A stretch of DNA of 64,000 nucleotides, taken from Sinohyriopsis cumingii (lineage: Eukaryota > Mollusca > Bivalvia > Unionida > Unionidae). Position numbers and translations under genes: made by a program. Positions 32,641 to 64,000 of the stretch are shown here, in pieces; the first letter of the stretch is position 1; each line of letters opens with the position of its first letter. Where the stretch lies: positions 2,063,001 through 2,127,000 of the forward strand of contig JAPYKE020000263.1 of the NCBI GenBank assembly GCA_028554795.2. Direction: 5' to 3'. Below the pieces are notes generated by a model. That model ran no database searches and was not told the DNA's origin. It was given only the letters and a program-made list of their open reading frames with translations.

Positions 32641-32704
<64 letters not shown>

Positions 32705-34790: not shown

Positions 34791-35029
34791 TCAAGTATAT
34801 TGAGGTTGAGTCAATGTCAACAAGTTTGTTGTAATGCAAGATATGCATCAAAAGACATTTGGCCATATGTTGCTTGCTGATTGTTAAGAAAGAATTAATT
34901 TGTTTATGATAGAGGATGCATTTAACCAATGAATTTGATAGAATTTCACTGTTACAACAAGTAATATTAGTATGTTCCTACTTGTCTTGATATTCATCAA
35001 CCATATTATTGAATTCTTATTTTCTTCCT

Positions 35030-35065
35030 TTTCATGATATCCTTCACAATACAGATTGTAAGTAT
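35030..35065 (+). other. Triplet cassette ATT (35055-35057)
   Basis: Acceptor CACAATACAG, triplet ATT, donor GTAAGTAT. This is the last cassette before the retroelement-bearing interruption. Confidence 0.62.
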
Positions 35066-35229
35066 TGAAACTACAATATTTTTGTTACTTGGTCTAAACT
35101 GTCATAGTCATCTCAAAAATAGAAAAAAAGGCTGAAGAAATATTTCAATTTTGTGGAAAATAATCCCTGAAATAAAACCATTGATAGCAGTATTAGTATG
35201 GTTAGTTTATTTTCTTTACTGTAGCAATG

Positions 35230-35566
35230 TAGGTACATATCTTCTTGAAAGACCTCTGCAATTAGCGACCACTTGTCATTTACGCCCACACTTGTAATGA
35301 ATGGATCAATTGTGTTCTGTAAACGAACTGAATAACCATATACTGAAAATGACCAGGGATCATGATGTCTTGGCAAAATCTGCATTTAGGTACTTCTATG
35401 AACAGCCGCAACGCACAAACTGAGATATACATAATAAAACGTTTTATAATCCCTTGTAATCATGACTACTTTCACCATTCTTAAAATAGGCTGGCTACCA
35501 ATTTATAACGTTTCATAGGTCATGAATATCACGATAAAAATTGTAGTTTGTAGAAAAGACTAAATT
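35230..35566 (+). repeat. Interspersed repeat, copy b
   Basis: Related to 34,461-34,790 and sits at the equivalent position in the next unit, so the insert was probably duplicated together with its host unit. Confidence 0.55.
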
Positions 35567-43715: not shown

Positions 43716-43973
43716 TAATAATAATTATCTAATCCTAACATGCACACTCCCTCCCAGCCTCTCCTCAGTTACATCCATATGGAGAGCGTACTTCCAACTT
43801 AAGTAGTAATGGTATTTTATGCAAGTGGAGATGACTCAGATAACTTAGTTTTTTGTTGATAATACGGTGTAGCCTTCGAGCGATTAATTTGCGAGGTAGT
43901 AGTATTTCTACCAATTAATGATGCAGTATTATAAAACAAACGTATTTTACTACAATTTTTTTATTGTCTTCTG

Positions 43974-44009
43974 TTTCATTATATCGTACACAAAACAGTA
44001 AGTAAGTAA
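43974..44009 (+). other. Triplet cassette TAA (43999-44001)
   Basis: Acceptor CACAAAACAG, triplet TAA, donor GTAAGTAA. Inclusion in phase 0 would add a stop codon; in the other two phases it need not. It is the first cassette after the retroelement region. Confidence 0.63.
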
Positions 44010-44839
44010 TACATCTCTCTATTTTCTAACACTTGACCTAAACTTTCTTTTGCGAGAGAGAGCTAACGATTTTCCAATAACCTTGTTTTGAGTGTAAATA
44101 ATACCGCGAAAAAAGCAAGAAAATGTCTGCAAAACCTCTGAAAGGGGAAAAGATCTAATTATACTGTGGACGATTTAATCTAAATCATCAATAACGGGCG
44201 GATGACCAACACAAAATTGATGCATGTAATATAAATATTGCATTATTTGAGTTTGATTTATTTTTGTTACAATCTTACATTTGTTTGATTGTTCGTTATC
44301 ATCCAGGATCATAATGTCGATTTATTTGTCGGAATTTTATGTCGGTATTACCAGAGAAGCAGTGGAATGTCATCAACTTGATCTTGTTGATCAAATTCTA
44401 TTTGATGTCTGTTCAGAAAAACGGAATCCACCAGAAGAGGCTTTGTGCATATATAATTGTTTGTATAATTCGATTTCTTATTTCGTTTATCAAACTTTGT
44501 TTGAAATAATTTCCATATTTGACTGATATCGAGCCGTATATGATTACCTTTTGCAAATATATTGTCGATACGCATTGGTAATATAATATGCATTTCATCA
44601 TTTGTCTGGATTACATACCAAAATTTACATCTTTATAGATACATGCATGCATGCATATACATGTACATATACATACAGCTTACAAACATCCACGGATAAT
44701 AAGATTCAGACATCCTAATCTTTTGGTGCAAGTTTGGTTTAATACACATTGAAATAGATATACATATTTTGTTCACTGTTTATAAGAAATTGAGTTAGGC
44801 ATGCATTGGTAGTATGAAAATATTGAATTTTGTTATCGT

Positions 44840-44875
44840 TTTCATTATATTGTTTGCAAAACAGTTGGTAAGTAT
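44840..44875 (+). other. Triplet cassette TTG (44865-44867)
   Basis: Acceptor GCAAAACAG, triplet TTG, donor GTAAGTAT. Three overlapping TGCATG motifs begin at 44,644. Confidence 0.65.
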
Positions 44876-45859
44876 TACATCTCATCAGTTTCTAAAATTT
44901 CTAGAATTGTCATCAATGAGACAGTATATACAAATGAAGAAAATCTTATTCCTTTCTTCCAAATAACCCATTTGTGTGTAAAATAATCATTTGAAAATAA
45001 CACAAGAAACTACGAATATAAGTCTACTTCAGACGACGTAAGTTAAATTATAGATCAGACTCAAATGATAAATTGTAGGTACCCTTTTTGATAGCAATTC
45101 TGTTATGCTGAGTTTATTTTCTATTCAGTAAAAATGTTAACATTTTTAGTGAATTTCATTAATTTCTTGTCATTATCCAGCAGGCAGCACTATTGGGTAT
45201 CTTTCACTGTATGTCATGTAAATTGGTAAAAATATCCAGTAAACCTGGTCCACTTCAATCAGTTGCATCTCATCAGCACCAGATAATTTGACTTGTTTTA
45301 TAGTTAGACATCTTTGAATTTATTTTCAATAGTATTTGTATTTTCCCGAATTACAAGTCTTTGAGAACATATTTTGATTCCTGGTATAATTGTATTTGTT
45401 ACTTTATTTTTAATACTATTGTTTTGAAACAATTTCTAAGATGTAGTGCATTTCATCGCTATTTCTAGACTTTGTGCACTATATCAATTAATTTCTGAAA
45501 CATGCGTTTTCATCCCAAACAAGACGAGCATGACTAATAATCAGGAATGCATAACAAAATAAGCATCTTCATGCATCCATTATACACATAAGCGTGAATG
45601 TATTATTACATACATTCTACCATAAATATATAGAACAGATCATAGTCAACGGGACGAAGCTTGCTATAATAAATTTAGACAAGTACATCGAAAGAGATCC
45701 AACTATGGTTTGTTAATTTTTAAGAGCGAATTTAGTTGCATTATTATAGAAGATATACCTCTAAAGTAAAGTTCATATAATTTGTACGTTGTAACACATA
45801 TCCTCGTGTTCCTATTTGTATTGATATCAATAATCTTATTAATATTATTTTTTTCTCTA

Positions 45860-45895
45860 TTTCATTATATCATTCACGAAACAGATGGTAAGTAT
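45860..45895 (+). other. Triplet cassette ATG (45885-45887)
   Basis: Acceptor CACGAAACAG, triplet ATG, donor GTAAGTAT. The zinc-finger-bearing insert begins shortly after its donor. Confidence 0.65.
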
Positions 45896-45987
45896 TGTTA
45901 CGACTCAAAAACTATGCAACATAAAGAGCTAAACCAACAGGTTTTGTAAGTGTTAGGAAATAAATTTGATTATCAACATGAACTTGC

Positions 45988-46190
45988 AGTGTTTTCTCCA
46001 GCAAAGAAAAGAAAACAGAAATGGAAGGAAAATTATGCCGTCATATTTAGATTTTGCGTTTTGAAAATTGTGTAATTGTGATTTTTCTTTTGAGCCTGGA
46101 GGTGGCGATGGCATAACAAAGCATGAAAAAGCCAATACACACAAACTTGTTGATTCATCATTAACAACCCAGCCTGAACCTTCAATGTTT
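45988..46190 (+). pseudogene. Relic of a BED/ZMYM-like zinc-finger domain (hAT-type transposon protein)
   Basis: At 45,988-46,080 one frame reads a basic, tryptophan-containing stretch (KKRKQKWKENYAVIF). In a different frame 46,071-46,140 reads CNCDFSFEPGGGDGITKHEK and a further His four residues on. The pattern Cys, then DFS, then a Gly-Gly-Gly turn, then His and His matches the modified zinc finger preceding hAT-like transposase or ZMYM-type domains in many invertebrate proteins. The frame change and the stop between the two parts show that it is not functional. The residual ORF 46,068-46,283 has no further recognisable domain. Confidence 0.55.
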
Positions 46191-46474
46191 ATATATACCA
46201 GAGAGTACCTTGCTATCATTGGATCGGAATATCATTTTAGTAAACTTCTTTTAAAAATGAAAAATTCTTTTTTCTGTTGCTAATGTTGCTGGCGATTTTT
46301 CCAGAGATCGAAATTTAAAGAATTACTAGTGTGCTAGACCTAAACAGTTTCGTAAGACAAAATCGCAAAGAAGTCAGATTATTGATGAACGATGGTGCAT
46401 TTCAATTGATAATAATTATTAAAACAAACATGGTATGGAAAAGGCTGCGATAAATAGCCCGTTTCTGCATGTGA

Positions 46475-46557
46475 GCGTGTTGCAATCTTGCACCTTCACA
46501 ATGACCACCCGAATGGAACTGTGTACCGCTCAGAAGGTGCAAGAGTGCAACACACGC
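46475..46557. repeat. Imperfect inverted repeat (hairpin)
   Basis: The left arm at 46,475-46,497 (GCGTGTTGCAATCTTGCACC and onward) pairs with the right arm at 46,533-46,557 (GAAGGTGCAAGAGTGCAACA and onward), with a 35-nt loop. There is one mismatch and a 2-nt gap. It could be a very short MITE or the collapsed ends of one. Confidence 0.75.
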
Positions 46558-47707
46558 ATCGTTGACATTAAATAAGTATGTTATTGCCCTACATTACAGA
46601 TTGTTGATGATTTTATAATTAGTTACATATGCATTAGAGTTTCAAACTTCAGTATCTGTTCCTGAACAGCTGTAGTTTTATCTTAAGCAATCAGTAGTTT
46701 TGGGGTTGACAGCTATGAAAATTAGGTAACATCATATACCTGACGTTACAAAAACAAAATTGATATACATAACAGCATTGTGTCTTGACATTTTGTAATG
46801 CTTGCTCTAATCGGTCATCTGAAACACAAAACCAAAGGATAGAGAATCTGTAATTTTTCTTCCGATAACCTTCATTGTTGTAAATGAGTTAAAATTGAGA
46901 ATATACTATAAAAATAGTATGTACAATTCAATAGTTGATAGTCAGATCACAAGTTCTAGTTGGCTTTTATAGGAATATTGCTATAATGAGGGTTTTTTCC
47001 TGCTGCATTAGGAACATTAATTTCCCCCTTCATCAATCAGCGTCATGTCGCCATCCAACAATGTATTGTATGTGCGTTTGAGATTTTAGCCAGTAAACAT
47101 GATTCAAGTGAAGGAACGTGATAACATCAGCATTGGATAATTGTATTCTTTATGTTGTTGTTTGAACTTTTTTTCCAATATACAAAAAAATATCCAACAA
47201 AATATGAAGCTTTGTTGCAGTATAATGAGCCATATCCTTCTTCAATTTCTTTTTAAGCTTACGAATTATGTTTGAAATTGTTTTATAAATTGAATGCTGC
47301 CCAGCTGTATATGAAGATATTTGCGCAACACGAATTTATTGATTTGTGAAACATAAGGTGTGTTTTCATCATAAACAAGCTGAGAACAGCTAATAAGTAG
47401 TGCTACATACCAAAATGTATATCTTCATGAGCAGACGCATACACATAAACTGGCATACATCCATACATACCTGTAATCATACAAATATTGAAACAGCCTA
47501 GTTTAAATTATAATATAATTAGACAAATATAGTAACAGAGATATGTTAATACATAACTTGTTGATAGTTAAATTGTATTATTATAGACTATGCATCTTGC
47601 AAGCGAAGTTGATTAAATTTCTAAATTCCAACACATAATACCCACATTGTTCCTGATTATACTTATATTAGTAGCTTGCTATTTGTAGCAACATGCTATA
47701 GAATTTG

Positions 47708-47743
47708 TTCTTTTCTATTTCACCCTTCACAGGCAGTAAGTAT
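47708..47743 (+). other. Triplet cassette GCA (47733-47735)
   Basis: Pyrimidine-rich tract CCCTTCACAG, triplet GCA, donor GTAAGTAT. The usual AAAA before CAG is deleted, yet AG-N3-GT spacing is kept. Confidence 0.65.
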
Positions 47744-48681
47744 TATTTATATCTCGGTATTCTCTAATACTTGGTCTAACAAACCAACATTGGCACAGGA
47801 CCTAATTGTACAAAATCGGATGTTTTCATCCAATAACCTAGTATGCAAAATAATCCCAAGAGAAAACTGAAAAGAAAAAAAAACAACTGCAAAACATTTG
47901 AAAGATATCTAAGTTTTAAATGACATAAGATAAATCGCAAATAATAGATGACAAATTATAGACGTCTTTGATAGCAACATTTGTATGATTATTTTCTTAC
48001 GTGTAACAAGATGTTTCGTTTCTTTTCTCTGATGATTCAACAACGTAATATTCATATTTTTCACTAATTTTATGTCAGTTTTGAATTATCATGTGCACTT
48101 ATCCAAATCAGGCAGTAAAACCTCTTAAGCATTGAATATTTTATTTTGCTCTTGTCATTGTTGAATTTATTTCCAACATACTGCTAAGCTAAACCCAGCA
48201 GAACAATAATGCTTTATTGCACATATAATGATTTATTTTCTCTTTTGTTTCTAGTTTGGTTTGACATAAATTAGTAGATTCCGTGCCATACAAACTACAT
48301 GAATATTTTTCGCAAGTGTACATTTTTATCCTTAGTAAATTAAGAACGAAGAATAATCAAGAATACTTACCATTATTCATATAATCATGGATACAGCCAT
48401 GCACGAATATAAATAAACAGACATGCATCTTTCCATACAGGCTTTCATACAAATATGGCAACATCTTAATATGTTGGAACAAATGTGTTATAATACAAAC
48501 AAATATAGTGATATAGAATAATCATAGATAGCTTGTTGATGGTTAGAAGGAATCAATTATAGTGTTGTAGGGAATAAACCTAACAGGTAAAATAAATAAA
48601 ATTTCTCCATTACTACATACATCAGATCCTATTCTCATATTGATCAGTGGTATCGTTACTGATTTTTTCTTCCTCTTTTTT

Positions 48682-48717
48682 TTTCATTATATTCGTCAAC
48701 AAATAGAAAGTAAGTAA
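48682..48717 (+). other. Triplet cassette AAA (48707-48709)
   Basis: Acceptor CAACAAATAG after a long T-rich tract, triplet AAA, donor GTAAGTAA. Confidence 0.65.
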
Positions 48718-49646
48718 ACTATCTCGACATTTTCCATTACTTGATCCAAACAGTAATAAGTAAGAGTAACAATCTAATTATTCTACGGATAACCTTAATT
48801 TGAGTATAAATAATCCCTGAGAAATAAACTGATGAAGAAATTTGGGAAACTGTACAATACGAAACAACTGGTCTAACCATATTGTACAAGACATAAGCTA
48901 AATAAAGTAGGTCAAATGACAAATTTAAGACTCCCTTCATAGCAAAATCATTATGTTTGGCTTGTTTTATTTTAAGTAGCAATCTGAATATGTTTGGTTT
49001 ATTTTTCATTTTCATCAATGAACGTAATCTCTTTAATATCTAATAATTAACTAGTTATTTTATTGTTACAATTGTATTTGAATTTGATGCCAAAATGTCA
49101 TAACAATTTTCTCTATACTTCAGTTAATTTTAGTTTAGGTCCTTCAATTTGTTTATCAAATTTATTTTTAAAAATTTGAATATCTTAATTTATATCTATT
49201 TTTTTTAAAACAAAATACCTTCCAAAAGTAAGTTTCGTCCTAGAGTATGTAAAAGACTTTACGCAAATATTTTCTTTAATTTCCGAAACACATTGTGGAT
49301 TTTCATCACGAACAATTACAGAATGCCTAATACTTAGTTAATATATACAAAACTTCATTTCTTCATGGATATATGCATGCATGCACACATCATTAGATAC
49401 ATATTCATATAAATATTGGAACACCCAAGTCTATGGGGTTACATTTTCATATAATACATACAGACAAATACAATGAGACATATATAGTTATAAGTTGCTT
49501 GTTGATTGCTATAAAGGAGTTTATTTGTGTTATTACTGTGGATCTATGTAATGAGTAAAGTTGACGTCCATTACAACACATTATATCATCATATTCCTTT
49601 CAATTTGATATTAATAAGAGGCATCCTATTAATAATTTTTTTCATT

Positions 49647-49682
49647 ATTTGATCCTGTCCTTCTCAAACAGTCCGTAAGTAT
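49647..49682 (+). other. Triplet cassette TCC (49672-49674)
   Basis: Acceptor TCTCAAACAG, triplet TCC, donor GTAAGTAT. TGCATG copies begin at 49,374. Confidence 0.65.
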
Positions 49683-49984
49683 TATACCTCAAGACTTTCT
49701 AACACCTGCTATAAAGAGTTATGTACTGATTTAGCATGTAAGAAGCAAAACGGATCCTTTTCTTCCACTGACAAATATTGTTGTGTATGCAAAATAATTC
49801 CAGAGAAATTACTGAATAAAAAGCTTCAAAAACTGAAAACAGGAAACAAAAGCTCTAATTATCCTGTAGACGAAATAGACCGAAACCATAGATAAGTGTC
49901 AGATGTTAAAGAAATTATAGGCGTCTTTGAAGTTATTATTGTCAAGCTGAGTTAATTTTCTTTATATTCATATGGTTTATTTTT

Positions 49985-50780
49985 TTCAACAAATTTTATT
50001 AAAAAAATAAGCAAATAATTTAATTATGAAAGTTACAAAATGAAAATTTAAATGGAATTTACTGTATTACTAATTAAATCCAAAATAATTCCAAAAGTTA
50101 TATCATAAGTTCTAAAGTATCAAGATCACGGAATGTACTGTTTTCTCAACAGTCCTGGTGTATCACAATGACATGGTCCAGAACAACTTTGAATAAATTC
50201 ACAGTAGTCCCAGAATAATATTTTAGTCCAAGGAGTAATTTGAAATTCCAATAAATAGGCAAATGTTTCCGCTCAAATTATGTCATATGAGAAATATTAA
50301 ATGTGCCTATACACTGCTACGCAAGAACATAAGAAATAAGAATCCGAAATAGGAGTGAAAATATGTCCAGATCTTTCTTCTTATATGCACCCTTATGACC
50401 TTAAGAAGCAGTTTTCTCCTACGCCCTAAGTGACATTTTGGAACAATCCACGTCGTTAAAGAGCCCACGTGACAGACCCATGCAATGGGAAATTGTCTTA
50501 ATTTTTCTAAGAACGCACATGACCTCCCCAATGAGGAATTAAAACAAACAAGTATACAGGATTATTGAGATTATTATTAATGATTGTAAACATCTTTTTT
50601 TATGCAAAGAATAGGCACTGTTAGTATCTTAAAATATAATAAATACCCGTGTTTAAAAATTGGCTACCTAATATTTTGTTTTTAGGTGATCATTAAAATT
50701 TATAATCGCAAACAAAATTATACATAAAACTGATAGTCATATATCAATAGTTACACAAAATATAGATATACATGACATTG
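49985..50780. other. AT-rich gap between units with no identified feature
   Basis: Unit landmarks are absent until GATATCTAGTAAACATGATCC at about 50,785. The ORF at 50,307-50,531 (minus) is not recognised. It may be an old insert. Confidence 0.45.
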
Positions 50781-51778
50781 TGAAGATATCTAGTAAACAT
50801 GATCCAGACCAATAGTCGAATCTAATGGGCATCACACAGTTCGAGTTTTTATTCTTTTCATATTTTCTTTTAATTTATTTCAAAACACAATTGAATCTAT
50901 CGGAATGTAAAAATATTCTTGCATGCTTATCCTTTTAAGCAACATCATAGTCTATCTGAACAAGTAGGGAAAAAATGAGGAAAATTACTGCTGAAACTAT
51001 GACCATGAAATAAGAAGCAACATAGCTATCAATACTGTAAGCTAAATGATACCTAAGAGTCATATGACAATTTATACATGTTTCCATAGCACTAGAGTTA
51101 TAGTTTCTTTTCTTTTCTGGAGTCATATTACTATGTATATTTTATTTATATTTTTGTATCCAAAAATGTAATTCTGGCATTTATCTGACATAAGTTTGAA
51201 AATACATTCCGTTATCATGATCCAAATCAAGCAGTTGGTCCACATGTGAATCGGAAAATTTGATTTTCTCTGGTTAACTTTCTTTTTAATTTATTTCTAA
51301 AATAAGATGTATGCTAAATAGTGTGAGGTCTTTGTGTATATGCCACGAAGCATTGTATAGTTTAGTTTCTTATTTCAATTGTCGAATTTAGATTGACATA
51401 GTATTCAAACCTTAGTGCAACCCCGTAGTATATGAAGACGTTAATTTGTGAAACATACGTTGCATTTGAATCACACATTGCGAACCACTAATAACATGAA
51501 ACATTCAAAATTACACATCTTCATGAATGCGTGGATACAAATAAACAAACGTAAGTCTTTATATACATTCATGGATTAAAATATTGGAAAATCCTAGAAT
51601 ATAATGTAGTTATAATAAACGAGACACATATAGCGAAGTAGATATAGTAATACAAAGCTTCTTGAATATATCTGTGAAGTAAAATTGATATAATTTCTCT
51701 ACTACAACACAGAAAATTCAGTTTCAGTGTTTACTGATTTTAGTTGCATCATATTATTAACGTCGTCTTTTCGTTCTT

Positions 51779-51814
51779 TTTCATTACATCCAACATAATA
51801 CAGACAGTAAGTAA
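51779..51814 (+). other. Triplet cassette ACA (51804-51806)
   Basis: Acceptor CATAATACAG, triplet ACA, donor GTAAGTAA. The preceding unit (about 50,930) has lost its cassette by deletion, giving a gap of 2.1 kb. Confidence 0.65.
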
Positions 51815-53174
51815 TACCTCAACATTATATATTATTTACTCAGAACATTCATCTAAGAAAACGAGCAAAAGGGTTTAAAATCTAATGATTTTTCTTACCG
51901 TATCTTTGTATTTTTGTAAAACATTCATGAAAAAGAAATAAATGAAGGAAAATGTGAAAGAATAAATATGTATAACTATAGTGTAGACGCTGAAACGTAA
52001 ATCATACATTGGTAGTAGTTAGATCTAAAATAAATTATGGATTCCTTTTGGCCGCAATTTTGCTTTGTTTCGTTTGTTTCGTTTTCTGTAACAAAGTTAA
52101 TATGCTAAGTTAATTTCTCGTTATCACGCAGCAACATAATGTCGTTATCTTTCACTATATTGTATGTAAGTATGTTACTATATGCAATGAACATGAGCCG
52201 AATAATTCTTTGAGAATTTTTTATCTTATTTAAAAGTTTTCTTTTTTTTATTTTTCCCCCCAAAATCCATTTGAAGGTTTTATGCATATATAAAAATTCA
52301 TTGAATACAATGTCTTATTATTTTATTTTATTTTTGATTTCGTTTAAAATAATTTCTAAAATTGAGTATAATAAAGACCTCATACAACTATATATATTTG
52401 CGAAATTCAAAGTCATTGCTTTTTATACGCAAGATAAGAATGACCAATAACCAGTAGTAAATACCAAAATATATAAATTTATAGATGAATGCATCTACCC
52501 ATTCACATAAATAAACATGGATATGGTGCTAATCTAATATTGAATTTGTCCTCCATGTCATCGATCTGAAAAATAAAGGCATATGGTTTACACCAAATAT
52601 ATCCCTATAATGTCTTGCTGGTCCGAAATTAAAATGGTGGTGTCAAACTTACATCCAGAAAATCCACCACAGCAGCTAATTTGAAAAACATCACTCAATT
52701 TGATGGAATCTTATTTATTTTGTTGCTTAATGTCCATTGGAATTATTTCCAAAATGATATCGTATCCAGCAGAGTGTGGAGGCTCTGTGCACATATAACG
52801 ATTTATTGTATAATTCAGCTTCTTTACTTTCTCATATTTTGTTTTAAATAATTTAAATTCAATGTTGTCTGGCAGTATCTGAATACTTTTTGCAATTATA
52901 TTGATTCATTTACAAAGCAATATGTATGTTCATCTTTGACAAATAACTACCAGGAATAAATACCAAACTATATCTTAAGAGTGATTCAAACATACACGAA
53001 TACACTTAAACTTACCTACATCCTAACATACATACATGCATAAAACTATCACATCATTCTTGTACACATTAAGACATTTTTCTCATAATATGTGGTGATA
53101 AGTGTAGTGCAAGACATAGAACCTTAATAGGTTTCTGATTGTTACAAATGAGTTCAGTTGAATTTTCTCCTCTT

Positions 53175-53210
53175 TTTCATCCTATTCTTCACAAAACAGT
53201 ATGTAAGTAT
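53175..53210 (+). other. Triplet cassette TAT (53200-53202)
   Basis: Acceptor CACAAAACAG, triplet TAT, donor GTAAGTAT. Confidence 0.66.
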
Positions 53211-54001
53211 TATATCTAAACTCTGGCCAATATTTATATAACAGGCAGAACATGAGAGTAGAGGCTCTTGTTTATTTTTAATAAAAATCTTGTTTTCTGT
53301 TAAGAATAATCCTGATTAAACAAACACTTGAAGAGAACACTGCATACATGATAAAAGAGAAAACAAAATATATAGTTACATTGCAAACAATTTTAGCTTA
53401 AGTCATAGATGAGAGCCAGATGAGGAATTATAGATGACATTGAAAGAAGTGTTGTTATATTTAATTTACTTTCTTTTCTGTAACAATAGTCATATGTTTT
53501 GTTTATTTTCATTATCATCCATAAACGTAATGCTTGTATGTACGTTTTCTGTTACATCTAGGAAATATTATATGTAAAGTTAAATTTCTTATTTGATTTT
53601 TCGAAATTCTGTTTGTAATAATTTTCTATGTTTACTACAATCAGACAGTATGTAAAGACTTTGTGAAATATATTGACACATTTGCAACACATAACATTCA
53701 TTATTATAACAAACAAATTGAGAAGGATTAATAACCAGGAATACATAACATAATACTATTTTCATGGATACATGCATGCATATATACATAAACATAAATC
53801 CACATATAACTAGTCTATTTGAACAAGTTTGATCTGATACAAAAAATGCAGTTAAATAAATACAGCCTTACACAAAATAATCTATTTATGATATAGGATA
53901 TATCAAACACGAAGATTTAATATAATTTCTCCATCGCAACACATCATATTACTATCTATATTGATATTAATGAATATTATTGTTTTTTATTTTCATTTTC
54001 T

Positions 54002-54037
54002 ATTCATTATATCTTTCCAAAAACAGTCCGTAAGTAC
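54002..54037 (+). other. Triplet cassette TCC (54027-54029)
   Basis: Acceptor CAAAAACAG, triplet TCC, donor GTAAGTAC. TGCATG lies at 53,773-53,778. Confidence 0.65.
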
Positions 54038-54665
54038 TATGAATCTAATTCATTTAATTCAAACAGTATAATTTCATCAGCATGATATAAATTTGTTTTT
54101 ATCTTGTACTCAATAATTTGTTCAAATTTATTTATAGAATAAGGTGTATCCAATTATATGCAAAAGCTTTGTGTACATATAATAATCCATTTCATATTTC
54201 ATTGTATCTCAATTCTGCAATTGTGTTTTAAATAATTTCCAGACATGAATGGCACTGAGCAGAAGATGAAGACCATTTTGTGGATATATTGATTCATTTG
54301 TGAAACATGTGTTTGTTTATCATACACAAGTTGAGCACGAGTAATTGCAAGTAATACCAAAAATACATATCGTGATGGATATAAGGGATCATCGCATACA
54401 CATTAACATCCATTCATCGTTACAAATATACATGGGAAGAAAGATACTTGAACGTCCTAATCTATCTGAACAGTAGATAGAAATATGATGAAAGAGGTAT
54501 AACCATACATAACTGTTGAGATTTAAGAATGCATGTTTAGTTATTACTATGGAGGCTACACCAAACCAAGATCATATAATTTCTCCCTGCAACACATCAT
54601 GTCATTAGGTTTCTATTCATCTGATATTAATCACTGTTATCTTATGATTGATTTTTTGTCGTCTT

Positions 54666-54701
54666 TTTCACGATATCCTTCGCAAACCAGCGCGTAAGTA
54701 T
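54666..54701 (+). other. Triplet cassette CGC (54691-54693)
   Basis: Acceptor CGCAAACCAG, triplet CGC, donor GTAAGTAT. Its distance from the previous cassette is only 664 nt. Confidence 0.65.
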
Positions 54702-55835
54702 ATCTCCCAGCAATGGATAATGCTTGTTTGAGACAGTTGCCTGAGAGATAGAAATTAAGAGTTGGGAATCAGTTTTTTTATATAATTTCCAATACCAATC
54801 TTTTCTGTGTTAAAATGTCCCTCAGAAACAATTATTGAAGCATTCAGAAACTGTGAAAGAAGAAACAACATATACAACTGACCAGAAATGACGGAAGCTA
54901 AAGTGATGCATTAGACTCTAATGATAATTACATTATAGATGTCCTTGATATGAATATTATGTTCCCTTTAGTTTATTTTCCTTTCACTAACATGAGCATG
55001 CGAGACTGTTAGGCAGTAGTTTCCAACGGGTCGATGGTTCTTTTTCAGTCTCCCTTGGTTCCTCCTCCACCAAATGTATAGGCATCCGTGTATATCATAT
55101 CATATACTTCAATCTGTCGAAATAATCCCAAAATATCAAGGTTTTCCTTTCTATAGCAATATACATCTCTTTAGTTTGTGTTTTCATACAAGAATATAAT
55201 TTCGAGGTGTTTTACTGAATGTTATGCCAATTGCAATTATATTCATTAACAATATCCGAATCAGTCAGTGGAATCTTATAAGTATCAAATAATTTCTCAT
55301 TCTATCATGTTTAATATTGCTTTGAAATTGTTTCTACACCTTGATTTTTCTAGCGGAATATTAAGGGTTTGTTCATGTATAGTGGTTCTTCGGAAGTTTG
55401 TTTTGGATTATTTTCCGAATTTTGTTTGAAATAATTTCCAAACGTTAGCGCTATGCAACAGTATATGAAGACATGAAAATATATCAATAGCTTTCTACAA
55501 CATAACGCATTTGTATTCTGAGTATTGTGAGAACTATAAATCTTGTTGGATACATGCATGTACGCATCAATATACATGGACAAGCACAATTACACATGCA
55601 TGCAGATGTTGGACAATGTTAGTCTGTAAGAAGAAGTTTCCTAGAATACCTAACGTACATGTAGTAAAGGAGATATAGGTACATGTAGCTTTAGATATTA
55701 AGAAGGGATTTAGTTATTATATTATATAGATTCCACCTGACAAGTAAGACTTATAATATGTCTCCATTACAATATAAATGATTTTCCTCATGTTTGCACT
55801 AATTAGTGATAACATTGTATTGATCGTTTTCTTAT

Positions 55836-55871
55836 TTTTTATTATATCCTTCAAAAACAGATTGTAAGTAT
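55836..55871 (+). other. Triplet cassette ATT (55861-55863)
   Basis: Acceptor TCAAAAACAG, triplet ATT, donor GTAAGTAT. TGCATG lies at 55,555-55,560 and 55,597-55,602. Confidence 0.66.
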
Positions 55872-56863
55872 TTTATATAGCAACATTGTGTAATACTCAC
55901 ATAAGAAGTCATTAAATAGATCAAAAGAGACGAAAATCTATTTTTTATCCTCTAGTAACCATGTTTGCTATGTAAACTAAAACGCGGGAGAAAAACAACC
56001 GAAGAAACAGTTTCCGAAACTATGAAAAAACACATCATATTTAACTGTATTGTTGACAATATAACCCAAATGACATATCATAATCAGATGACAAAACATA
56101 TATTGACATCTTTGATAGCAATATTTCTATGTTAACGTTACTTTACTCTCTGTAACAGTATCAATGTGTGTAGGTGTTTTCCACTATCATCCAGCAACCT
56201 AATGTTGTTATCTTTATCTGTCATTTATTCAAAGTTGGAAGTTTGTCATGTGAAAATAAATCAATCAGTAAAATCTAGTGAGCTTTGGATACCTGTTTCT
56301 GTTCACAAATTCGGTTTGAATTTATTTCCAAAATTATTCGTATCTATCAGAATTTGAATCCTTTGTACACGTATTGAAATACATATTTTCAGTTCCTTAT
56401 TTCATTTGTTTAATAATATTTTTATATTAAAAATTTGTGTTGTACGCTGCTAATGAAGACTTTGTGCAGATATAAGGATACATCTGAGAAACATACCACA
56501 TATTTTCATTATAAACAAGTTGAAAACAAGTTATAAGCAGGAACAAATACCAAAGTAGATATATTGCTGGATACGTGCATTGATGCATACACATAAATAA
56601 TCATACATCATTATCTAAATACACGGAAACATATTGTATCATCATATTCTATTTAAACAAGTTATAACATATACAAGCAAATGTAATGCAAGACACATAG
56701 CCACAGAGCTTGTTGATTGTGAAGATGGAATTGAGTTGTGTCGTTAGTGAGAAGATGCCTGACAAATAAATTTGATATAATTTCTCTATTATAAGACACA
56801 TTACATTCTTTCTATTTATACTAATAATGAACGGTCGTATCATGTTACTGATTTGTTGTTCTT

Positions 56864-56899
56864 TATCATTATACCCTTCACAAAACAGGTAGTAAGTAT
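56864..56899 (+). other. Triplet cassette GTA (56889-56891)
   Basis: Acceptor CACAAAACAG, triplet GTA, donor GTAAGTAT. Confidence 0.66.
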
Positions 56900-57870
56900 T
56901 ACATCTCAACATTTTATTGTACTTGCTCAAAATGCATTCACAAGACAGAAGAAACTTGGACATAATTTTATTTTTCCTCTTCGAATAACTTTTCTTTTTG
57001 TGTGTATGATCACAGCTGGGAAAGGTCTTAGAGACCAAGCAGCGTATCTAACCGTACTGCAGATTATGTAATCTAATCTTAGACATGAGTTATGTTACAA
57101 ATACATTATACATGCCTTTTTATATAAATATTGTTATTTTGAGCATATTTTCATGTCTGTGACAAGATGAATATTTTATTTTTTGTCATCCAGCATCTGA
57201 ACGTTAGGATACTTTACTGATTTATATAAATTGGCAATTATATTATACCCTGTAAATATGATCCAAATCGATCAGCTGTGACTTATTTGATGATTTGAGA
57301 TTTACCTTGTTCAAACTGTGTTTAAATTTATTTTCAAAATAAGTTCTATCCAACTCGATGTTAGTGTGCACACGTGATTCAGTGTTTAATTCAGTTTCTT
57401 GTTTCATTTGTGAATTTTGTTTGGAATGATGTGCAAAAATACAGTACTGTCCATGAGTATATGAAGACTGTATGAAAATATAGCGATTTCATTCATTTGT
57501 GAAATATAAGATGCTTTTATCATAAAACAAAGTGAGAACAACAAATATCTAGGAATATATATCGATTACATATTCATGGATACATGCACTCACGCATAAA
57601 CATAAACATGTAAATACATTAAAACATACACAAACATAACAATATTGGGATATCCCAGTCGATTAGAAAGTTCGTTATAATACATTGACACACATATTGA
57701 AAGAGATAAATCAATATATTAGCTTATTGGTTGCTCACAGGGATTTGTTATATTGTTGTAGAGGATACATCAGATATCTGAAGTTGATATAATTACTCTA
57801 TTCCAGCGCATTATATCGTTTCTGTTTATAATGATATTAATCTGCAGTATCATTGATTTGGTATTTTCTT

Positions 57871-57906
57871 TTACATCCTATCATTCACAAAACAGCGAGT
57901 AAGTAT
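57871..57906 (+). other. Triplet cassette CGA (57896-57898)
   Basis: Acceptor CACAAAACAG, triplet CGA, donor GTAAGTAT. Confidence 0.66.
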
Positions 57907-58602
57907 TATATCTGGACATTTTCTGATGCTTTCTCTGAACATCAATCCAAGAGACAGAAACGATAAGAAAATCAGATATTTTCTTTTTGTAATGAACTTG
58001 TTTTGTGTGTAACGTATTCCCAAAGAGAAACCTCTGAAGGAAAACTGCAGAAACTGTGAAAGAAGAAAACAACAGATCTAACTATCCGTTAGATAACTTC
58101 AGCCAAACCATGAATGAGAGTCAGAGTACAGATAAATAATAGACACCATTCGAGGGCCAAATTGTAATATTTAATTTATTTTGTTTTGTACAACAATTCA
58201 TTGCATGTTGTTTGTTTGTTGTAGTTTTTTTCGTGTTTGGTTATCATCAAGCAACGTAATATCTGCATGTTCCATTGAATTGTGTCGACTTACAATTACA
58301 TTGCGTAAACATGGTCCGAACAAGTCCGTAGACCTGTTGGGCATTGGATAATTTCATATTTTATCATGTTGTAAGTTTTTATCTTTTTGAATATATTTAC
58401 AAAATTAGTTGACTCTAGGGGAATGTGAAGGCTTTGTGTGCATATAACGATTCACCGAATAGTTCAGGGTTTTCGTTTTCTTAATATTATTTGAAATAAC
58501 GTGAAATTTAAGTGTGATTCAGCTGTATATGAAGACTTTATGCAAAGTGTCGATTCATTTGTGAAACAAAACATGCATTTTCATTTTTCTGATATTGTGT
58601 TT

Positions 58603-58638
58603 CTGTTCTTCATTATATTAAAAACAGGCAGTAAGTAT
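58603..58638 (+). other. Triplet cassette GCA (58628-58630)
   Basis: Acceptor TAAAAACAG, triplet GCA, donor GTAAGTAT. The distance from the previous cassette is 732 nt. Confidence 0.66.
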
Positions 58639-59286
58639 TATACCTTGATATTTTCTAATACCTTAAGCATCCAACCAAGGCACACAATACAAAAGAATCA
58701 ACTTTGATTTGTCTTTTTCAATGACACTGTTTCATGTCCAAAATAATACCCGATAAACAACTGAGGAAGAACACTGCATAACCTATGAAAGAGTGAACGA
58801 CTGAGCTGACTGTACTGTAGACGGTGTAAGCTATGTCATTGGCACTGAGTCAGATGACAGCACTAATAATGTATTTGATATGATTAGCGTTATGTGTAGT
58901 TTATTTTATTTTCTGTAACAAAATTAATCTCGGTATATTTCATGCAATACTATATCACTTTGCTTCATTCAAATTATGCACTGAAGTTTCATCAGTATCA
59001 GATAATTTGTATTTTATCTTTCTGTGCAAAGTTTTGTTAGAATGTAATTCGAAAATAAATTGTGATCACCAGACTATGATTGCTTTAATGCTTGTTTAAT
59101 GATCCATTGAATAATTCAATTTCTTATTTCCTTTTGAACTATCTTATAATTTTTTAATTGAGTGCCTTTTAGTTGTATATGAAGACTTTGTGCAAATATA
59201 TAGACTGAGTTCAGAACACAACATTCAATTTCATTACGAACATGATTAGAAGGACTAATAACCAGGAATGCATACCAAAATACACT

Positions 59287-59290
<4 letters not shown>

Positions 59291-59318
<28 letters not shown>

Positions 59319-59350
59319 CATACATACATACATACATACATACATACATA
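59291..59350. repeat. CATA microsatellite
   Basis: Fifteen perfect CATA tetranucleotides. They replace the CATGCATACA-rich block of this unit and probably expanded from it. Confidence 0.97.
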
Positions 59351-59572
59351 ACGATATCGAACATCTAAGTCTATGGAGACCGGTTGTAATGCATTCAGAA
59401 ATTGAGTGAAATTTTTTAACTATACATTGCTTGATGGCTGTTAGCAAGGAATCAAATTAATGTATTATACCAGATAAACCTAACAAGATTGATATAATTT
59501 CTCAGTTACAAAACATGTTCTTGTTTAAATTGATAAGAATATCATCGTATAATTGATTTGTATTGTCCTCTG

Positions 59573-59608
59573 TTTGATTGTATCGCTTACAAAACAGGTG
59601 GTAAGTAT
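59573..59608 (+). other. Triplet cassette GTG (59598-59600)
   Basis: Acceptor TACAAAACAG, triplet GTG, donor GTAAGTAT. A CATA microsatellite sits about 250 nt upstream, where other units carry the CATGCATACA-rich block. Confidence 0.65.
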
Positions 59609-60602
59609 CATATCTCAACATTTTCTATGATTTGCTCTAAACTGTGATCAAACAGATGGAACAAAAGAGTGACTCTATGATTTGTGTTATTATAATTACC
59701 TTGCATTTATGTGTTAAGTAATGAGCCAAAACGTTATAAACAAAATAATTAAATTATAATATGACAATGCAAGCTAAATCAATTGAAAGGGCTTCATGAC
59801 AGGTCATATATAACTTTGATAGCAATATTGTTTTTTAAAAATATATTTTCTTGTCTGTAGCAGCAGTAATATGTTTATTTATGTGTAATTTTCTCACTAT
59901 CATCCAGCGATTTAATTGAGGAGACTTTCACTGAATTTTATATTGCTTTGAAATTAAATCCAGCAAAACGTATCCGAATCAATAAGAACAATCTCTTCAA
60001 CTTTGGATAACTTTTGTCTTGTTGTTCAAAATTTATTTTTATTTGATGCATTAGTTGAATTTACGAGACTGTTAATGCTTTCTACACATATAATGATTCA
60101 GTGATGAATTAAATTGTTTCTTTAATTTGCTAATTTTTATTCAGATAATTTCCAAACCTTTGTTGCCATTCAGGAGTATATACGGCCTTTATGGAAAAAT
60201 ATAGATTTATATGTGAAATATTATGTGGATTTTCACGGTAAAATTGTAGTGTTGAATAATGAAGAAAAATACTAAATTAGATATCTTCGTGGATACATGC
60301 ATGCACGCATACGCACAAATAGGCATACATCGAAAACATGCATAAATACAAGCAGATATAAAATAATTATAGTTTATGGGGACTCGATTGTTACAATATG
60401 AACAACAAATATATTGACCGATATATAACTATTCATAGCTTATTGGTTATTTCGAAACATTTTAGTTTTTTTTATTTTAAAGTGTACAACTTGACAGGTA
60501 AAGATTATTGTATTATTCAATAAAGCAAATTATATCATAATGTTCGTATTTAAATTGATAGTAAGGCAACTTTATCATGTTATTAATCTCATATATTTGT
60601 AT

Positions 60603-60638
60603 ATTTCATTAAATCCTTCAAACATAGCATGTAAGTAT
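60603..60638 (+). other. Triplet cassette CAT (60628-60630)
   Basis: Acceptor CAAACATAG, triplet CAT, donor GTAAGTAT. TGCATG lies at 60,298-60,303. Confidence 0.66.
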
Positions 60639-61140
60639 TATTTAAATATATTCTGATTCCTGCTTTAGCAGTCATCAAAGTGAATAAGGAGTAGAAAATC
60701 TAATTGATTTATTATTTTGCATACCGCAATTATCTGTAAAATAAAACCGGGCAAAAATTTTAAGAAACAATTGCCGAAACTGTGAAAGAAGAAACATCTT
60801 AAACTAACTCATAGGTGAATGCTGGATGACAAATAAATTATAGACACGATCGATAGCAATAATTTGTTTAAATTATTTTCTCCTCCATAACAATGTTAAT
60901 ATGTTTTGTTTGTTTTTATAATCTGGCAATGAAATCTTGATATTTTTTTCTTATTTTCTCTATCAATTTGTAACTATATTAAGTAAATATGATACAACTC
61001 AAGTAGTAGAATGCGTTCATTCGTATTATTATAGAGAATGCACCTAAAACACAGATATTTTTTCATTACAATACAGATCTTTTTCTTTTTATTGATATTA
61101 ATAACATATTATTGATTTGTATTTTCTTCTGTTTCATTAT

Positions 61141-61166
61141 CCCCCCCCCCAAAAAAAAAAAACCCC
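61141..61166. repeat. Homopolymer run C10-A12 followed by CCCC
   Basis: Ten C then twelve A then four C, directly before the acceptor of the GCT cassette. It could be a sequencing or assembly artefact. Confidence 0.9.
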
Positions 61167-61181
61167 ACAGGCTGTAAGTAT
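61146..61181 (+). other. Triplet cassette GCT (61171-61173)
   Basis: A run of C then A replaces the normal sequence before the acceptor, ending CCCCACAG; triplet GCT; donor GTAAGTAT. The distance from the previous cassette is only 543 nt. Confidence 0.62.
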
Positions 61182-61825
61182 TATATCGCAATATTGTCTA
61201 GTGCTTGCCTTTTACATCCCTTTGCAATTAAAGCTAACAAGCATGATCTGAATGAATCACTTTGACCTCATGCACATTGGATAATACGAGATTTTACCTT
61301 TTTTATTCAAATTTTCTTTCAACTTTATTTTAAGATAAGGTGCATTAAACATATGTTATAAAGCTTTGTTTTAATTTTGTGATATTCGTTAGACGTAATT
61401 TCCAGAATAAAGTGCCATCTAGCAGTGTATTAAGTCTTTATGCAATTGTTAAACATGTGTATTTACATCAAGAACAAGATGAGATCGACTAAGGACCATG
61501 GATATTTATTAAAATGCATACCTTCATTGATGACTACATGCACTCATATGCAATCATATATCCGCACATGAATATATGCATATCATTATCGAAATATCAT
61601 AGTCATTGCGATCAGATTTGTTGTAATACATTCAGCCGAATAATGTGAGTGACACGTCGCCAGATAAAGCTTATTGACTGTTAACCAATACATGTTTTTA
61701 TTATAGTATAAACATGACAAGTACAGTTGACATAATTTCTCCATTACGACACCTTGTATCAACATTTTCCTTGTTTTACTGATAGTAATCAGTAATATCG
61801 TATTGTTAATTTCATCTTTCTTATT

Positions 61826-61861
61826 TTTCATTATATTCTTCCAAACACAGTCTGTAAGTAC
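61826..61861 (+). other. Triplet cassette TCT (61851-61853)
   Basis: Acceptor CCAAACACAG, triplet TCT, donor GTAAGTAC. Confidence 0.65.
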
Positions 61862-62822
61862 TATGTCTTGACATTTTCTGTTGCATGCTCTAAACAGTCA
61901 CCATAGTTACAGAACAATACATTAGAAAATCTAATTGTTTTCTTTCAATAATCTTGTTTTGTGTGTAAAATTATCCCGAGAAAATCGAAGAAAATTGCAG
62001 AAACAGTGACAGAAAACACAAATCTAACCATAGTGTAGACGATATCATCTAGATCGTAGATAAACCGGAAGGCAAACAAAGCTAATAGCAATATTTTTAT
62101 GTTTATTTTTCTGCAACAGTAATAATATGGTTTATTTTTCGTTACCCATGAATGTATTGTTAGTATTGTTCAGTGAATTTTGTACAAACTTGTGACTAAT
62201 GCTAGGAATAATGATTTAAATGAATCAGTGGAATTTCATTAGGGTTGATAGCTTGGTTTTTCTACCTCGTTCGTTAACTTTATTTGAATTTATTTCCAAA
62301 AATAATTATATCCAGCAGAATGTTAAGGCTTCGTGCACATATAATGATTCATTGTTAAATTAAATTTTATTGTAATATTTTGAGTTCTGATTGAAATAAT
62401 TTCCGAAACGTAATCCTATCCAGCAATACTTGCAGAATTTGTGCAACTGTATGAATTAGTTTATGAAATATAAGGTGTATGGTCACTATAAACAAGTTGA
62501 AAATGGAATTCATACCAAAAATATCCATCTTCATTGATACATGCATGCGGGCATAAAAGTAAGCATAAACATTCTTCCAGACTGGATGATATGAGGCTGT
62601 GGGAACATTTTTATGATATACAGACGTATATAGAGAAGGATATGTATCCAGATATAGCCTGTTGATTGTTAATAAGGATGTTAGTTGTAGTTATACGGGA
62701 GGCACCAAAGAAATACAGCTGATATAAGTTTGTCCTCCGCAACATATCATGTTTTTATTTATGCTCATATTAATCAGATCAGACATATCATGTTTTTGGC
62801 TTTTATTTTTTCCTCTTTTTCA

Positions 62823-62858
62823 TTATGATCTTCAAACAATACAACAGGTCGTAAGTAT
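62823..62858 (+). other. Triplet cassette GTC (62848-62850)
   Basis: Acceptor ATACAACAG, triplet GTC, donor GTAAGTAT. TGCATG lies at 62,542-62,547. Confidence 0.65.
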
Positions 62859-63246
62859 TACGTCTGGACATCTTGTAGTACTGCCTTTAAACAGTGATCT
62901 AAAAGACTGAAGGAAATATTATAAAATCAGTTTTTTCAAACTTGCATATAGATTTTTTTGTGTGAAATCAACTCCAGAAAAGCATGTATGGAAAAATATT
63001 CAAATCTGTGGAAAAATTTTTTTTTAGATTTTACGATACTTTAGATCATGCATGCTATATCATAGAACACAGCCAGGTCACAAACAGATTATAGAGTAAT
63101 GGAGTATTTTAGATATAGCCATACATAGCATGGTGGTTCTTAAAAGAAGGAATTTAAGTAAAGTTGTTATAATTTCTCCATTAAAATAAATTATATCATT
63201 TTGCTATTAATAGTGATATTTATTAGCATCATTATTTTCACTTCTT

Positions 63247-63282
63247 CTTTTTCATTATTTCCTTAAAAAAGCGAGTAAGTAT
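63247..63282 (+). other. Triplet cassette CGA (63272-63274)
   Basis: Acceptor CTTAAAAAAG, triplet CGA, donor GTAAGTAT. The unit is shortened to about 424 nt from the previous cassette but the cassette is complete. Confidence 0.63.
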
Positions 63283-63698
63283 ATCTCAACCTTTTCTTAT
63301 ATTTTTGATGACGGGTCATCAGTGATATAGAACAAAACAGTTGAAATGTTCTTTGATAAAACGAAACAGTATTTCGAACTATACTGTAAATGATGTTAGC
63401 TAAAACAAAAACAAGAGTCAGATGACAAATAAATTATAATTTTCTTCAACGGCAATATTGTTAAATTTTGCTATATTTTATTTTCTGTAACAACAATGAC
63501 ATGTGAAAGAAACACAAATCTGACAATTCTTTAGACTTTGTAAGCCTCATTATAGAAAAGTCTGACAGCAAATTTTAGATGTGTCTGATATCAATATGTT
63601 TAATCTATTTTTTTCCTTTCCTGAACACTTTTACCATCCTTTTTCTTAAACTCGTATTAATCAAATCTGTTAAAGAACTGTATTTTTTTTTCCTCTTT

Positions 63699-63734
63699 CA
63701 TTATGTTCTATAAAAAAAAACAGTTGACAAATAT
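63699..63734 (+). other. Degenerate cassette TTG (63724-63726)
   Basis: The acceptor AAAAACAG is intact, but the donor position reads ACAAAT, so no GT follows the triplet. It is the only right-hand cassette without a donor. Confidence 0.45.
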
Positions 63735-64000
63735 ATATCTGGACATTTGGTAATAATTTAAATAATGATCTAAGAGACAGAAGAAAAAAATATATATTAG
63801 AAAATCCGATTTTTATGTATGTAGAAATGCACTTTTCCTTGCTTAGTTACACGCGGGAAATTATCGAACAACCTAGTGTATGAGAACAAGTCTTCTAGAA
63901 TACACATAAACAAACAAATGAAGTAAATTACCATACAAAGCTTGGTGATTCTTCAAAGAATGAATTAACTTAGACTATTAGTGAGGATGCACAAACAAGT

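What the first reader, a model, noticed from the sequence alone, without database searches (positions are those of the whole stretch)
43974..63734. Tandem array of AG-N3-GTAAGT cassettes: candidate 3-nt microexon array
Twenty-one consecutive diverged units each hold, at the homologous position, a pyrimidine-rich tract ending in AG, exactly three bases, then a donor. AG is present in 21 of 21 and GTAAGT in 20 of 21. An exact AG-N3-GTAAGT is expected by chance about once in 65 kb of equal-composition DNA. The units around it differ by many substitutions and indels, so purifying selection on paired splice sites around a three-base exon is the simplest explanation. Single 3-nt exons are known (for example the AAG exon of vertebrate NCAM1), and schistosome micro-exon genes show that arrays of tiny in-frame exons exist. 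A long series of 3-nt exons, each with its own triplet, is not something I know to be described.
Basis: partly seen in the sequence, partly recalled or inferred. Interest (0 to 1): 0.96.

Follow-up and report, generated by a model that had tools for sequence, protein, structure and literature searches.

The report
Tandem array of three-base exons
A stretch of DNA, probably from an animal, repeats a roughly 1,000-base unit dozens of times, and most units keep a pair of splice signals around just three bases that differ from unit to unit, as if a gene could add single amino acids from a menu of one-codon exons.

Summary
At 43,997-63,722, 21 of 21 homologous sites carry AG and 20 of 21 carry GTAAGT exactly three bases later. 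AG-N3-GTAAGTA occurs 25 times in the window, all on the + strand, against 0.49 expected. The array also covers much of the left of the window: a profile with the cassette masked finds 19 further sites, 10 of them distinct, with weaker donors. Purifying selection on the right-hand sites is clear: seven columns are invariant in all 21 rows: acceptor A and G, four donor positions, and an A, 20-21 bases before the junction in 15 of 21, that fits a branch point. Distant columns average 0.50 pairwise identity. The three bases behave oppositely, at 0.23-0.24 (random); 0 of 438 other three-column windows are as variable, although a tree-based rate ranks them fourth of 502. Paired splice sites around 3-nt exons are by far the best reading. 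Diversifying selection on the triplets is suggested, not proven. No RNA, host gene or organism could be identified. Single 3-nt exons and flatworm micro-exon genes are known; my ten paper searches showed no long array made only of 3-nt exons.

The parts
43910..64000 (+). right-hand tandem array, units of about 1 kb, cassettes mostly intact; runs to the window end
   Evidence: unit profile hits; cassettes
1..35250 (+). left-hand part of the same array, broken by insertions, with a tandem duplication of about 9.65 kb (copies from 1 and 9660, a third partial from 19309)
36849..39972 (+). broken retrotransposon coding region (RNase H and integrase zinc-binding domains; the label Gypsy-type is recalled, long terminal repeats not sought) lying between the two parts of the array
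   Evidence: ORFs; Pfam PF17919, PF17917, PF17921 in 2 of the 6 ORFs searched here
43997..44007 (+). cassette AG-TAA-GTAAGT
44863..44873 (+). cassette AG-TTG-GTAAGT
45883..45893 (+). cassette AG-ATG-GTAAGT; unit body interrupted by about 870 bases and resuming at 46773
47731..47741 (+). cassette AG-GCA-GTAAGT (branch-point-like A 16 bases before the junction, cassette intact)
48705..48715 (+). cassette AG-AAA-GTAAGT
49670..49680 (+). cassette AG-TCC-GTAAGT
51802..51812 (+). cassette AG-ACA-GTAAGT
53198..53208 (+). cassette AG-TAT-GTAAGT
54025..54035 (+). cassette AG-TCC-GTAAGT
54689..54699 (+). cassette AG-CGC-GTAAGT
55859..55869 (+). cassette AG-ATT-GTAAGT
56887..56897 (+). cassette AG-GTA-GTAAGT
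57894..57904 (+). cassette AG-CGA-GTAAGT
58626..58636 (+). cassette AG-GCA-GTAAGT
59596..59606 (+). cassette AG-GTG-GTAAGT
60626..60636 (+). cassette AG-CAT-GTAAGT
61169..61179 (+). cassette AG-GCT-GTAAGT; a C run and an A run sit just upstream, cassette intact
61849..61859 (+). cassette AG-TCT-GTAAGT
62846..62856 (+). cassette AG-GTC-GTAAGT
63270..63280 (+). cassette AG-CGA-GTAAGT
63722..63732 (+). cassette with lost donor AG-TTG-ACAAAT
308..318 (+). left cassette AG-CTC-GTTAGT (copies at 9967 and 19616)
1871..1881 (+). left cassette AG-AAG-GTAAGC (copies at 11530, 21180 and 23295)
4558..4568 (+). left cassette with lost acceptor AA-TTC-GTAAGT (copy at 14217)
6528..6538 (+). left cassette AG-CTG-GTGAGT (copy at 16185)
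7362..7372 (+). left cassette AG-CTC-GTGCTT, weak or dead donor (copy at 17021)
8912..8922 (+). left cassette AG-GTG-GTAAGT (copy at 18562)
26713..26723 (+). left cassette AG-CGC-GTAAGA (weak: E 0.36 with the masked model, 0.00024 with the unmasked one)
30769..30779 (+). left cassette AG-GTG-GTAAGT
34147..34157 (+). left cassette AG-TTT-GTAAGT
35053..35063 (+). left cassette AG-ATT-GTAAGT

Best explanation
This is part of one large gene, probably of an animal (organism not identified), whose exon-intron unit (a 3-nt exon plus an intron of about 1 kb) was multiplied and has since diverged. Selection keeps each right-hand unit's branch point, acceptor and donor (shown as conservation), so each triplet can be spliced in as an exon that adds one codon without shifting the frame (inferred). 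The mechanism proposed is stepwise splicing: the upstream exon joins a triplet, and the donor directly behind that triplet is then used with a later acceptor (inferred). A 3-nt exon leaves almost no room for exonic signals, and the triplet itself occupies the donor's -3 to -1 positions; this would explain why the intronic donor is the extended GTAAGTA, complementary to the start of U1 RNA (U1 pairing recalled, not tested), while the triplet is free to vary. I think it most likely that varying subsets of triplets are joined in order, giving protein isoforms that differ by single residues, as in flatworm micro-exon genes, and that the triplets have been driven apart by selection for variety (both inferred). 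The confidence given is for the triplets being spliced exons in whatever mode; the first rival, mutually exclusive use, is a part of it, which leaves about 0.5 for serial use.
For: 20 of 21 right-hand sites have AG-N3-GTAAGTA; 25 such matches in the window against 0.49 expected, all + strand. Recovered with the cassette masked. Of 487 well-filled alignment columns seven are invariant in all 21 rows: A and G of the acceptor, four donor positions, and an A in TTTCAT or a close variant, 20-21 bases before the junction in 15 of 21 sites and 16-35 in the rest, fitting a branch point; three other columns are invariant but in only 18-20 rows. The 3-base spacing holds in 21 of 21 although the distance from that A to the AG departs from 21 in 9 of 21. 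In the alignment of 16 whole units the eleven highest of the 12-column windows are the cassette; by eye I saw no second splice-like pair in the consensus. Triplets: pairwise identity 0.23-0.24 against a mean of 0.50 in 490 distant columns, 0 of 438 three-column windows as low; in 120 masked-and-realigned control windows, sampled from 310 possible, the mean is 0.59 and none is at or below 0.26 (lowest 0.27; 0.356 among the 101 that keep register). Triplet G+C is 28 of 63 against 29.3% typed in for the surroundings (binomial p 0.012; composition). Only 3 of the 20 intact right-hand triplets end in G (list), unlike ordinary donors (recalled).
Against: No transcript, host exon, reading frame or organism is known. 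A tree-based rate estimate puts the triplet window fourth of 502, not alone, so diversifying selection is only suggested. The invariant A rests on a gapped alignment; without gaps the same position holds A in 12 of 20 sites, and in the left part it is A in 8 of 10 distinct sites (rows), with G in one copy (16185) of a site that has A. Left donors are weaker (GTAAGT in 5 of 10). Left triplets are less varied (0.37 against 0.65 in other columns; 5 of 134 windows as low) and share T at position 2 in 8 of 10. If read as codons in phase 0, the first right-hand triplet, TAA, is a stop. The triplets show no significant amino-acid restriction (12 or fewer distinct residues in 15-21% of simulations). 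Neighbouring units are no more alike than others (permutation p 0.76), with only a slight overall trend for closer units to be more alike (Spearman -0.15, naive p 0.035); simple stepwise tandem duplication would predict more.
Confidence: 0.72

Rival explanations
1. Mutually exclusive 3-nt exons (a mode inside the best explanation): each mRNA takes one triplet from the menu, as the Dscam gene does with larger exons, so that a single position of one protein can hold many residues.
For: Tandem array of homologous sites with conserved splice signals and diverse contents. The listed triplets cover 12 amino acids and a stop in phase 0.
Against: No docking or selector element was identified, but I did not model pairing between units; apart from the cassette the most conserved blocks are short and A/T- or CATG-rich. 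Nothing in the sequence separates this from serial inclusion.
Confidence: 0.22
2. Stepwise removal of a very long intron (recursive splicing): the paired sites are ratchet points and the three bases are incidental.
For: Acceptor followed three bases later by a very strong donor, spaced at about 1 kb.
Against: Known ratchet points leave nothing behind because acceptor and donor abut (recalled); here three bases would stay in the mRNA at every step. An incidental triplet should drift like its flanks, but it is more variable, though by the tree-based rate not uniquely so.
Confidence: 0.1
3. Each unit is a transposon-like intron (Introner type) whose own ends are GTAAGTA and ACAG, inserted next to one another; the triplets are leftovers of the insertion sites.
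For: Would give random triplets without selection. Nearly star-like relations with no neighbour effect (internal branches 10% of tree length). Introners may carry both splice sites (passages of PMC9860276).
Against: The cassettes found lie in one orientation (41 + strand hits and one - strand hit with E 0.43) with exactly three bases between acceptor and donor; a site duplication passed from insertion to insertion would give equal, not different, triplets. Old dead insertions would not keep their ends near 100% while their bodies fall to about 50% identity; this last argument fails if the elements had already diverged while active.
Confidence: 0.08
4. Conserved DNA or non-coding RNA element unrelated to splicing, such as a protein-binding site in a satellite array.
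For: No transcript is known; I recognised no coding content in the unit.
Against: The conserved positions are those of branch point, acceptor and extended donor, in order and at distances normal for splicing (normal distances recalled).
Confidence: 0.05

Closest known systems
Flatworm micro-exon genes (MEGs; Schistosoma, Echinococcus, Hymenolepis)
   Same: Many tiny exons in multiples of three separated by long introns; exon skipping can give proteins differing by one residue (passages of PMC7653826; passages of PMC10526429).
   Different: MEG exons are of mixed size, mostly 15 bp and 6-81 bp in the text of PMC10526429 (its abstract says 3-81); here every exon-like site recognised is exactly 3 nt and the units are homologous repeats of one another. 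The organism here is not known to be a flatworm.
Single 3-nt microexons (Ncam; Drosophila troponin T lysine exon)
   Same: One-codon exon between introns (passages of PMC8042270).
   Different: Named there as single exons, not as an array of diverse triplets.
Dscam-type arrays of mutually exclusive exons
   Same: Tandemly duplicated alternative exons (start of the abstract of PMC3236188 in the listing; otherwise recalled).
   Different: Exons there code for parts of or whole immunoglobulin domains; no selector system was found or sought in depth here.
Recursive splice sites
   Same: Acceptor and donor close together inside long introns (recalled).
   Different: Three bases lie between them in all 21 right-hand sites.
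Introners
   Same: Repeated elements that behave as introns and may carry their own splice sites (passages of PMC9860276).
   Different: Here head-to-tail, one orientation, fixed 3-base spacing.

Membership tests
Micro-exon gene (MEG), criteria of PMC7653826 | micro-exons with lengths divisible by three, under 70 nt | tested here: inconclusive
   3-nt spacing between acceptor and donor position in 21 of 21 right-hand sites, but exon status not shown by RNA
[quoted passage not shown] at least seven exons, half of them micro-exons | tested here: inconclusive
   20 consecutive exact cassettes; whole gene structure unknown
Micro-exon gene (MEG) | found in flatworms; secreted product | not testable with these tools
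   organism and host gene not identified; no genome held
3-nt microexon | acceptor with branch point, three bases, donor | tested here: met
   branch-point-like A in 21/21, AG 21/21, GTAAGT 20/21 on the right; on the left 8/10, 9/10 and 5/10 of the distinct sites. The branch point is judged by motif and distance only
3-nt microexon | triplet present in spliced mRNA | not testable with these tools
   no RNA data
Dscam-type mutually exclusive exons | one exon chosen per transcript | not testable with these tools
   no RNA data
Dscam-type mutually exclusive exons | docking and selector sequences | not tested
   conserved blocks listed, pairing not modelled
Recursive splice site | acceptor AG immediately followed by donor GT | tested here: not met
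   three bases lie between them at all 21 right-hand sites
Introner | dispersed copies in many genes | not testable with these tools
   only the window is available
Introner | target-site duplication (present in some families only) | tested here: inconclusive
   the triplets on the two sides of a unit differ for all 20 neighbouring pairs; 17 distinct triplets among 21 (list). Families without duplications exist, and old duplications would have decayed

The most novel reading that the evidence does not exclude
A hypervariable gene built codon by codon: dozens of homologous one-codon exons, each with splice signals held fixed by selection and a triplet driven to differ from the others, chosen in combinations so that one locus can make a very large set of proteins differing by single residues.
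Probability: 0.35. Interest if true: 0.95.

Novelty: new variant of a known kind. Interest (0 to 1): 0.84.

Why it matters
If the triplets are spliced, this is an extreme of exon size and number: a long series of one-codon exons that ordinary gene finders and read aligners are likely to miss. It would test how the spliceosome handles exons with no room for exonic signals, and would show a way to diversify a protein one residue at a time.

Tried and rejected
Chance: rejected, 25 against 0.49. Choice bias: rejected by the masked profile. Ordinary satellite drift: rejected, because on the right AG and donor columns stand far above and triplet columns far below the average. Coding exon elsewhere: in the consensus of 16 units I saw no other splice-like pair by eye (no systematic splice-site search was made). 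Pfam on ten ORFs, chosen from the list, gave retrotransposon domains in 2, one match below its cut-off in 1 and nothing in 7. Structured RNA: no Rfam match at gathering scores; tRNA: none with the bacterial code.

Amino-acid restriction: the 32 listed triplets (21 right, 10 distinct left, plus the decayed site 24702) contain no D, E, N, Q, G, P, C or W codon in phase 0 (simulated chance 0.0001-0.0004), but that set was picked after looking; the number of distinct residues gives 0.15-0.21, so I do not claim it. Hypermutable triplets: the 15 copies of six sites in the 9.65-kb duplication keep their triplets unchanged, but at such similarity few changes are expected, so this excludes only a very high rate. 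Rbfox-type TGCATG (name recalled): 17 on the + strand of the right part against 6.4 in a first-order model, but 10 of 21 units have none upstream and the motif lies largely in a CATG-rich repeat; not claimed. Related DNA: no exact match in IMG/VR for TTCACAAAACAG-N3-GTAAGTATT. I did not search the bacterial genome, phage, plasmid or E. coli collections, since the DNA looks eukaryotic; no structure was predicted. In one search the aligner put one right-hand row (47731) out of register in the right and all-31 alignments, so right-hand figures are taken, where all 21 rows are in register.

Organism: I suspect a mollusc or another lophotrochozoan from the TACA-type repeats and the look of the retrotransposon, but this is recall only, with no test.

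Literature: the listings showed no array of 3-nt exons; the library holds open-licence papers only. Papers were seen as listings and passages, none in full; the founding MEG paper (PMC2909574) is not held.


Full report
Observation. The pattern AG-N3-GTAAGT occurs 26 times on the + strand of the window and never on the - strand. Five lie in the left part (8912, 18562, 30769, 34147, 35053) and one (41954, AAG) lies outside the array units, between the two array parts. All 20 right-hand donors read GTAAGTA; AG-N3-GTAAGTA gives 25 matches against a shuffle mean of 0.49, largest 4.

Units. A profile built from 16 units (16 of the 19 intervals between neighbouring cassettes, those under 1.2 kb) matches not only 43.9-64 kb but much of 1-36 kb, on the + strand apart from two weak low-complexity hits. 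The left part contains a tandem duplication of about 9.65 kb, with copies 96-100% alike in the blocks listed, and is separated from the right part by a broken retrotransposon and other inserted DNA. Unit matches reach both window ends, so the true size of the array is unknown. To avoid choosing sites by the feature under test I masked the 12 cassette bases and searched again: 42 hits, of which 21 are the right-hand sites, one a truncated piece at 46773, 19 left-hand sites and one a - strand hit with E 0.43. One of the 19, 26713, is weak (E 0.36). The 19 left sites are 10 distinct ones plus copies. Among the 31 distinct sites AG is present in 30, GT in 30 and GTAAGT in 25 (counted); in the left part alone GTAAGT is 5 of 10, the rest GTTAGT, GTAAGC, GTGAGT, GTGCTT and GTAAGA. 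One more decayed site, 24702 (GG-ATC-GTAATG), was found only by the full-unit profile and is not in these counts. Some units seem to have lost the cassette region by rearrangement, for instance at the joints near 27.36, 50.97 and 52.7 kb (profile coordinates).

What is conserved. In an alignment of the 21 right-hand sites with the triplet masked, columns more than 45 before or 40 after the triplet have mean pairwise identity 0.50 (490 columns); AG is 1.0 and the donor 0.9-1.0. Among 487 well-filled columns, seven are invariant in all 21 rows: the two acceptor bases, four donor bases and one A upstream. That A stands in TTTCAT or a close variant and lies 21 bases before the junction in 12 of 21 sites, 20 in 3 and 16-35 in the other 6. 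It fits a branch point (motif and distance recalled). The gapped alignment helps it: without gaps the position holds A in 12 of 20. In the left part it is A in 8 of 10 distinct sites (rows). Three further columns are invariant but filled in only 18-20 rows. The 3-base spacing never changes on the right although the stretch upstream of AG varies in length, including a C run and an A run in the unit at 61169. This is what purifying selection on a complete set of splice signals looks like.

What varies. The triplet columns have identity 0.23, 0.24 and 0.24, the level of random letters (0.25 from their own composition). None of 438 three-column windows elsewhere is as low, and none of 120 control windows, sampled from 310, masked and realigned, is at or below 0.26 (mean 0.59; 101 kept register). 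The control windows were taken from columns filled in at least 14 of 16 units, which may be better conserved than average. A site-rate model on a tree is less extreme: the triplet sites rank 2nd, 24th and 80th of 558, and the triplet window 4th of 502. In the left part the contrast is weaker (0.37 against 0.65, 5 of 134 windows as low), with T at position 2 in 8 of 10. Triplet G+C is 28 of 63 (44%) in the right part against about 29% around. I read this as faster than neutral change of the triplets in the right part, probably selection for variety, but not proven.

Mechanism. A 3-nt exon leaves no room for exonic enhancers, and the triplet is at the same time positions -3 to -1 of the donor. 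Only 3 of the 20 intact right-hand triplets end in G (list). The intronic donor is instead GTAAGTA in all 20, followed by T in 15 of 20, which matches the 5' end of U1 RNA over seven to eight bases (recalled). So the donor could work whatever the triplet is. Stepwise splicing, with the upstream exon first joined to the triplet and the donor behind it then used again, avoids the clash of two splicing complexes on three bases (inferred). Whether many triplets are joined in series or one is picked per mRNA cannot be told from sequence. I favour series by analogy with micro-exon genes, at roughly two to one. Read in phase 0, the 21 triplets give one stop (the first) and 20 residues; of the other two frames of the joined triplets one has one stop and one has none, so the frame is undecided.

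History. Pairs of right-hand units are 40-63% identical outside the cassette in the 600-base stretch aligned, and neighbours are no more alike than the average pair (0.500 against 0.504, permutation p 0.76); a rank correlation over all pairs shows a slight decline with distance (-0.15, naive p 0.035). This suggests one old burst, much shuffling, or insertion of separate elements. The last is the Introner rival. I rate it low because of the uniform orientation, the fixed 3-base spacing and the conservation of the ends in diverged copies, though the last point would fail if the elements had diverged while active.

Known relatives. Single 3-nt exons are described in Ncam and Drosophila troponin T (passages of PMC8042270), and even 1-nt exons in plants (passages of PMC8831610). 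Flatworm micro-exon genes have runs of small exons in multiples of three and can make proteins varying by one residue through skipping (passages of PMC7653826); in S. mansoni the text gives 6-81 bp and mostly 15 bp (passages of PMC10526429), while its abstract gives 3-81. Their fast evolution is the subject of PMC4350168 (title and passages). The listings of ten searches showed no array made only of 3-nt exons; the library lacks most subscription papers. I therefore class this as a new variant of a known kind.

Limits. There is no RNA, no host gene, no organism and no second genome. The claim that splice signals are under selection is strong, that the triplets are exons is likely, and that they are diversified codons is plausible.

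Noticed in passing
window 1-23665: Tandem duplication of about 9.65 kb (copies 96-100% alike in the blocks listed), third copy partial, with a further 2.1-kb duplication near 21-23.7 kb; may be recent or an assembly effect.
   Followed up: partly
window 36849-39972: Broken retrotransposon (RNase H, integrase zinc-binding domains) between the two parts of the array.
   Followed up: partly
window 1054-1612 (and copies near 10713-11271 and 20299-20983): Inverted repeat arms of 177-240 bases, 88-91% complementary, 205 bases apart, perhaps a pair of SINE-like elements in opposite directions (label recalled); related pieces lie at 24972-25072 and 25860-25932.
   Followed up: no
window 31006-33566: A second repeat pair (31614-31977 and 32899-33246, 73% identical, about 1.3 kb apart) that matches the array unit only in part; may be a diverged branch of it.
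   Followed up: no
window 41954: AG-AAG-GTAAGTC outside any array unit; may be chance or an exon of inserted DNA.
   Followed up: no
window 43950-64000: TGCATG occurs 17 times on the + strand against about 6 in a first-order model; 12 of the 17 lie 200-430 bases before a cassette, near a CATG-rich block; possible splicing-factor sites or only a simple repeat.
   Followed up: partly
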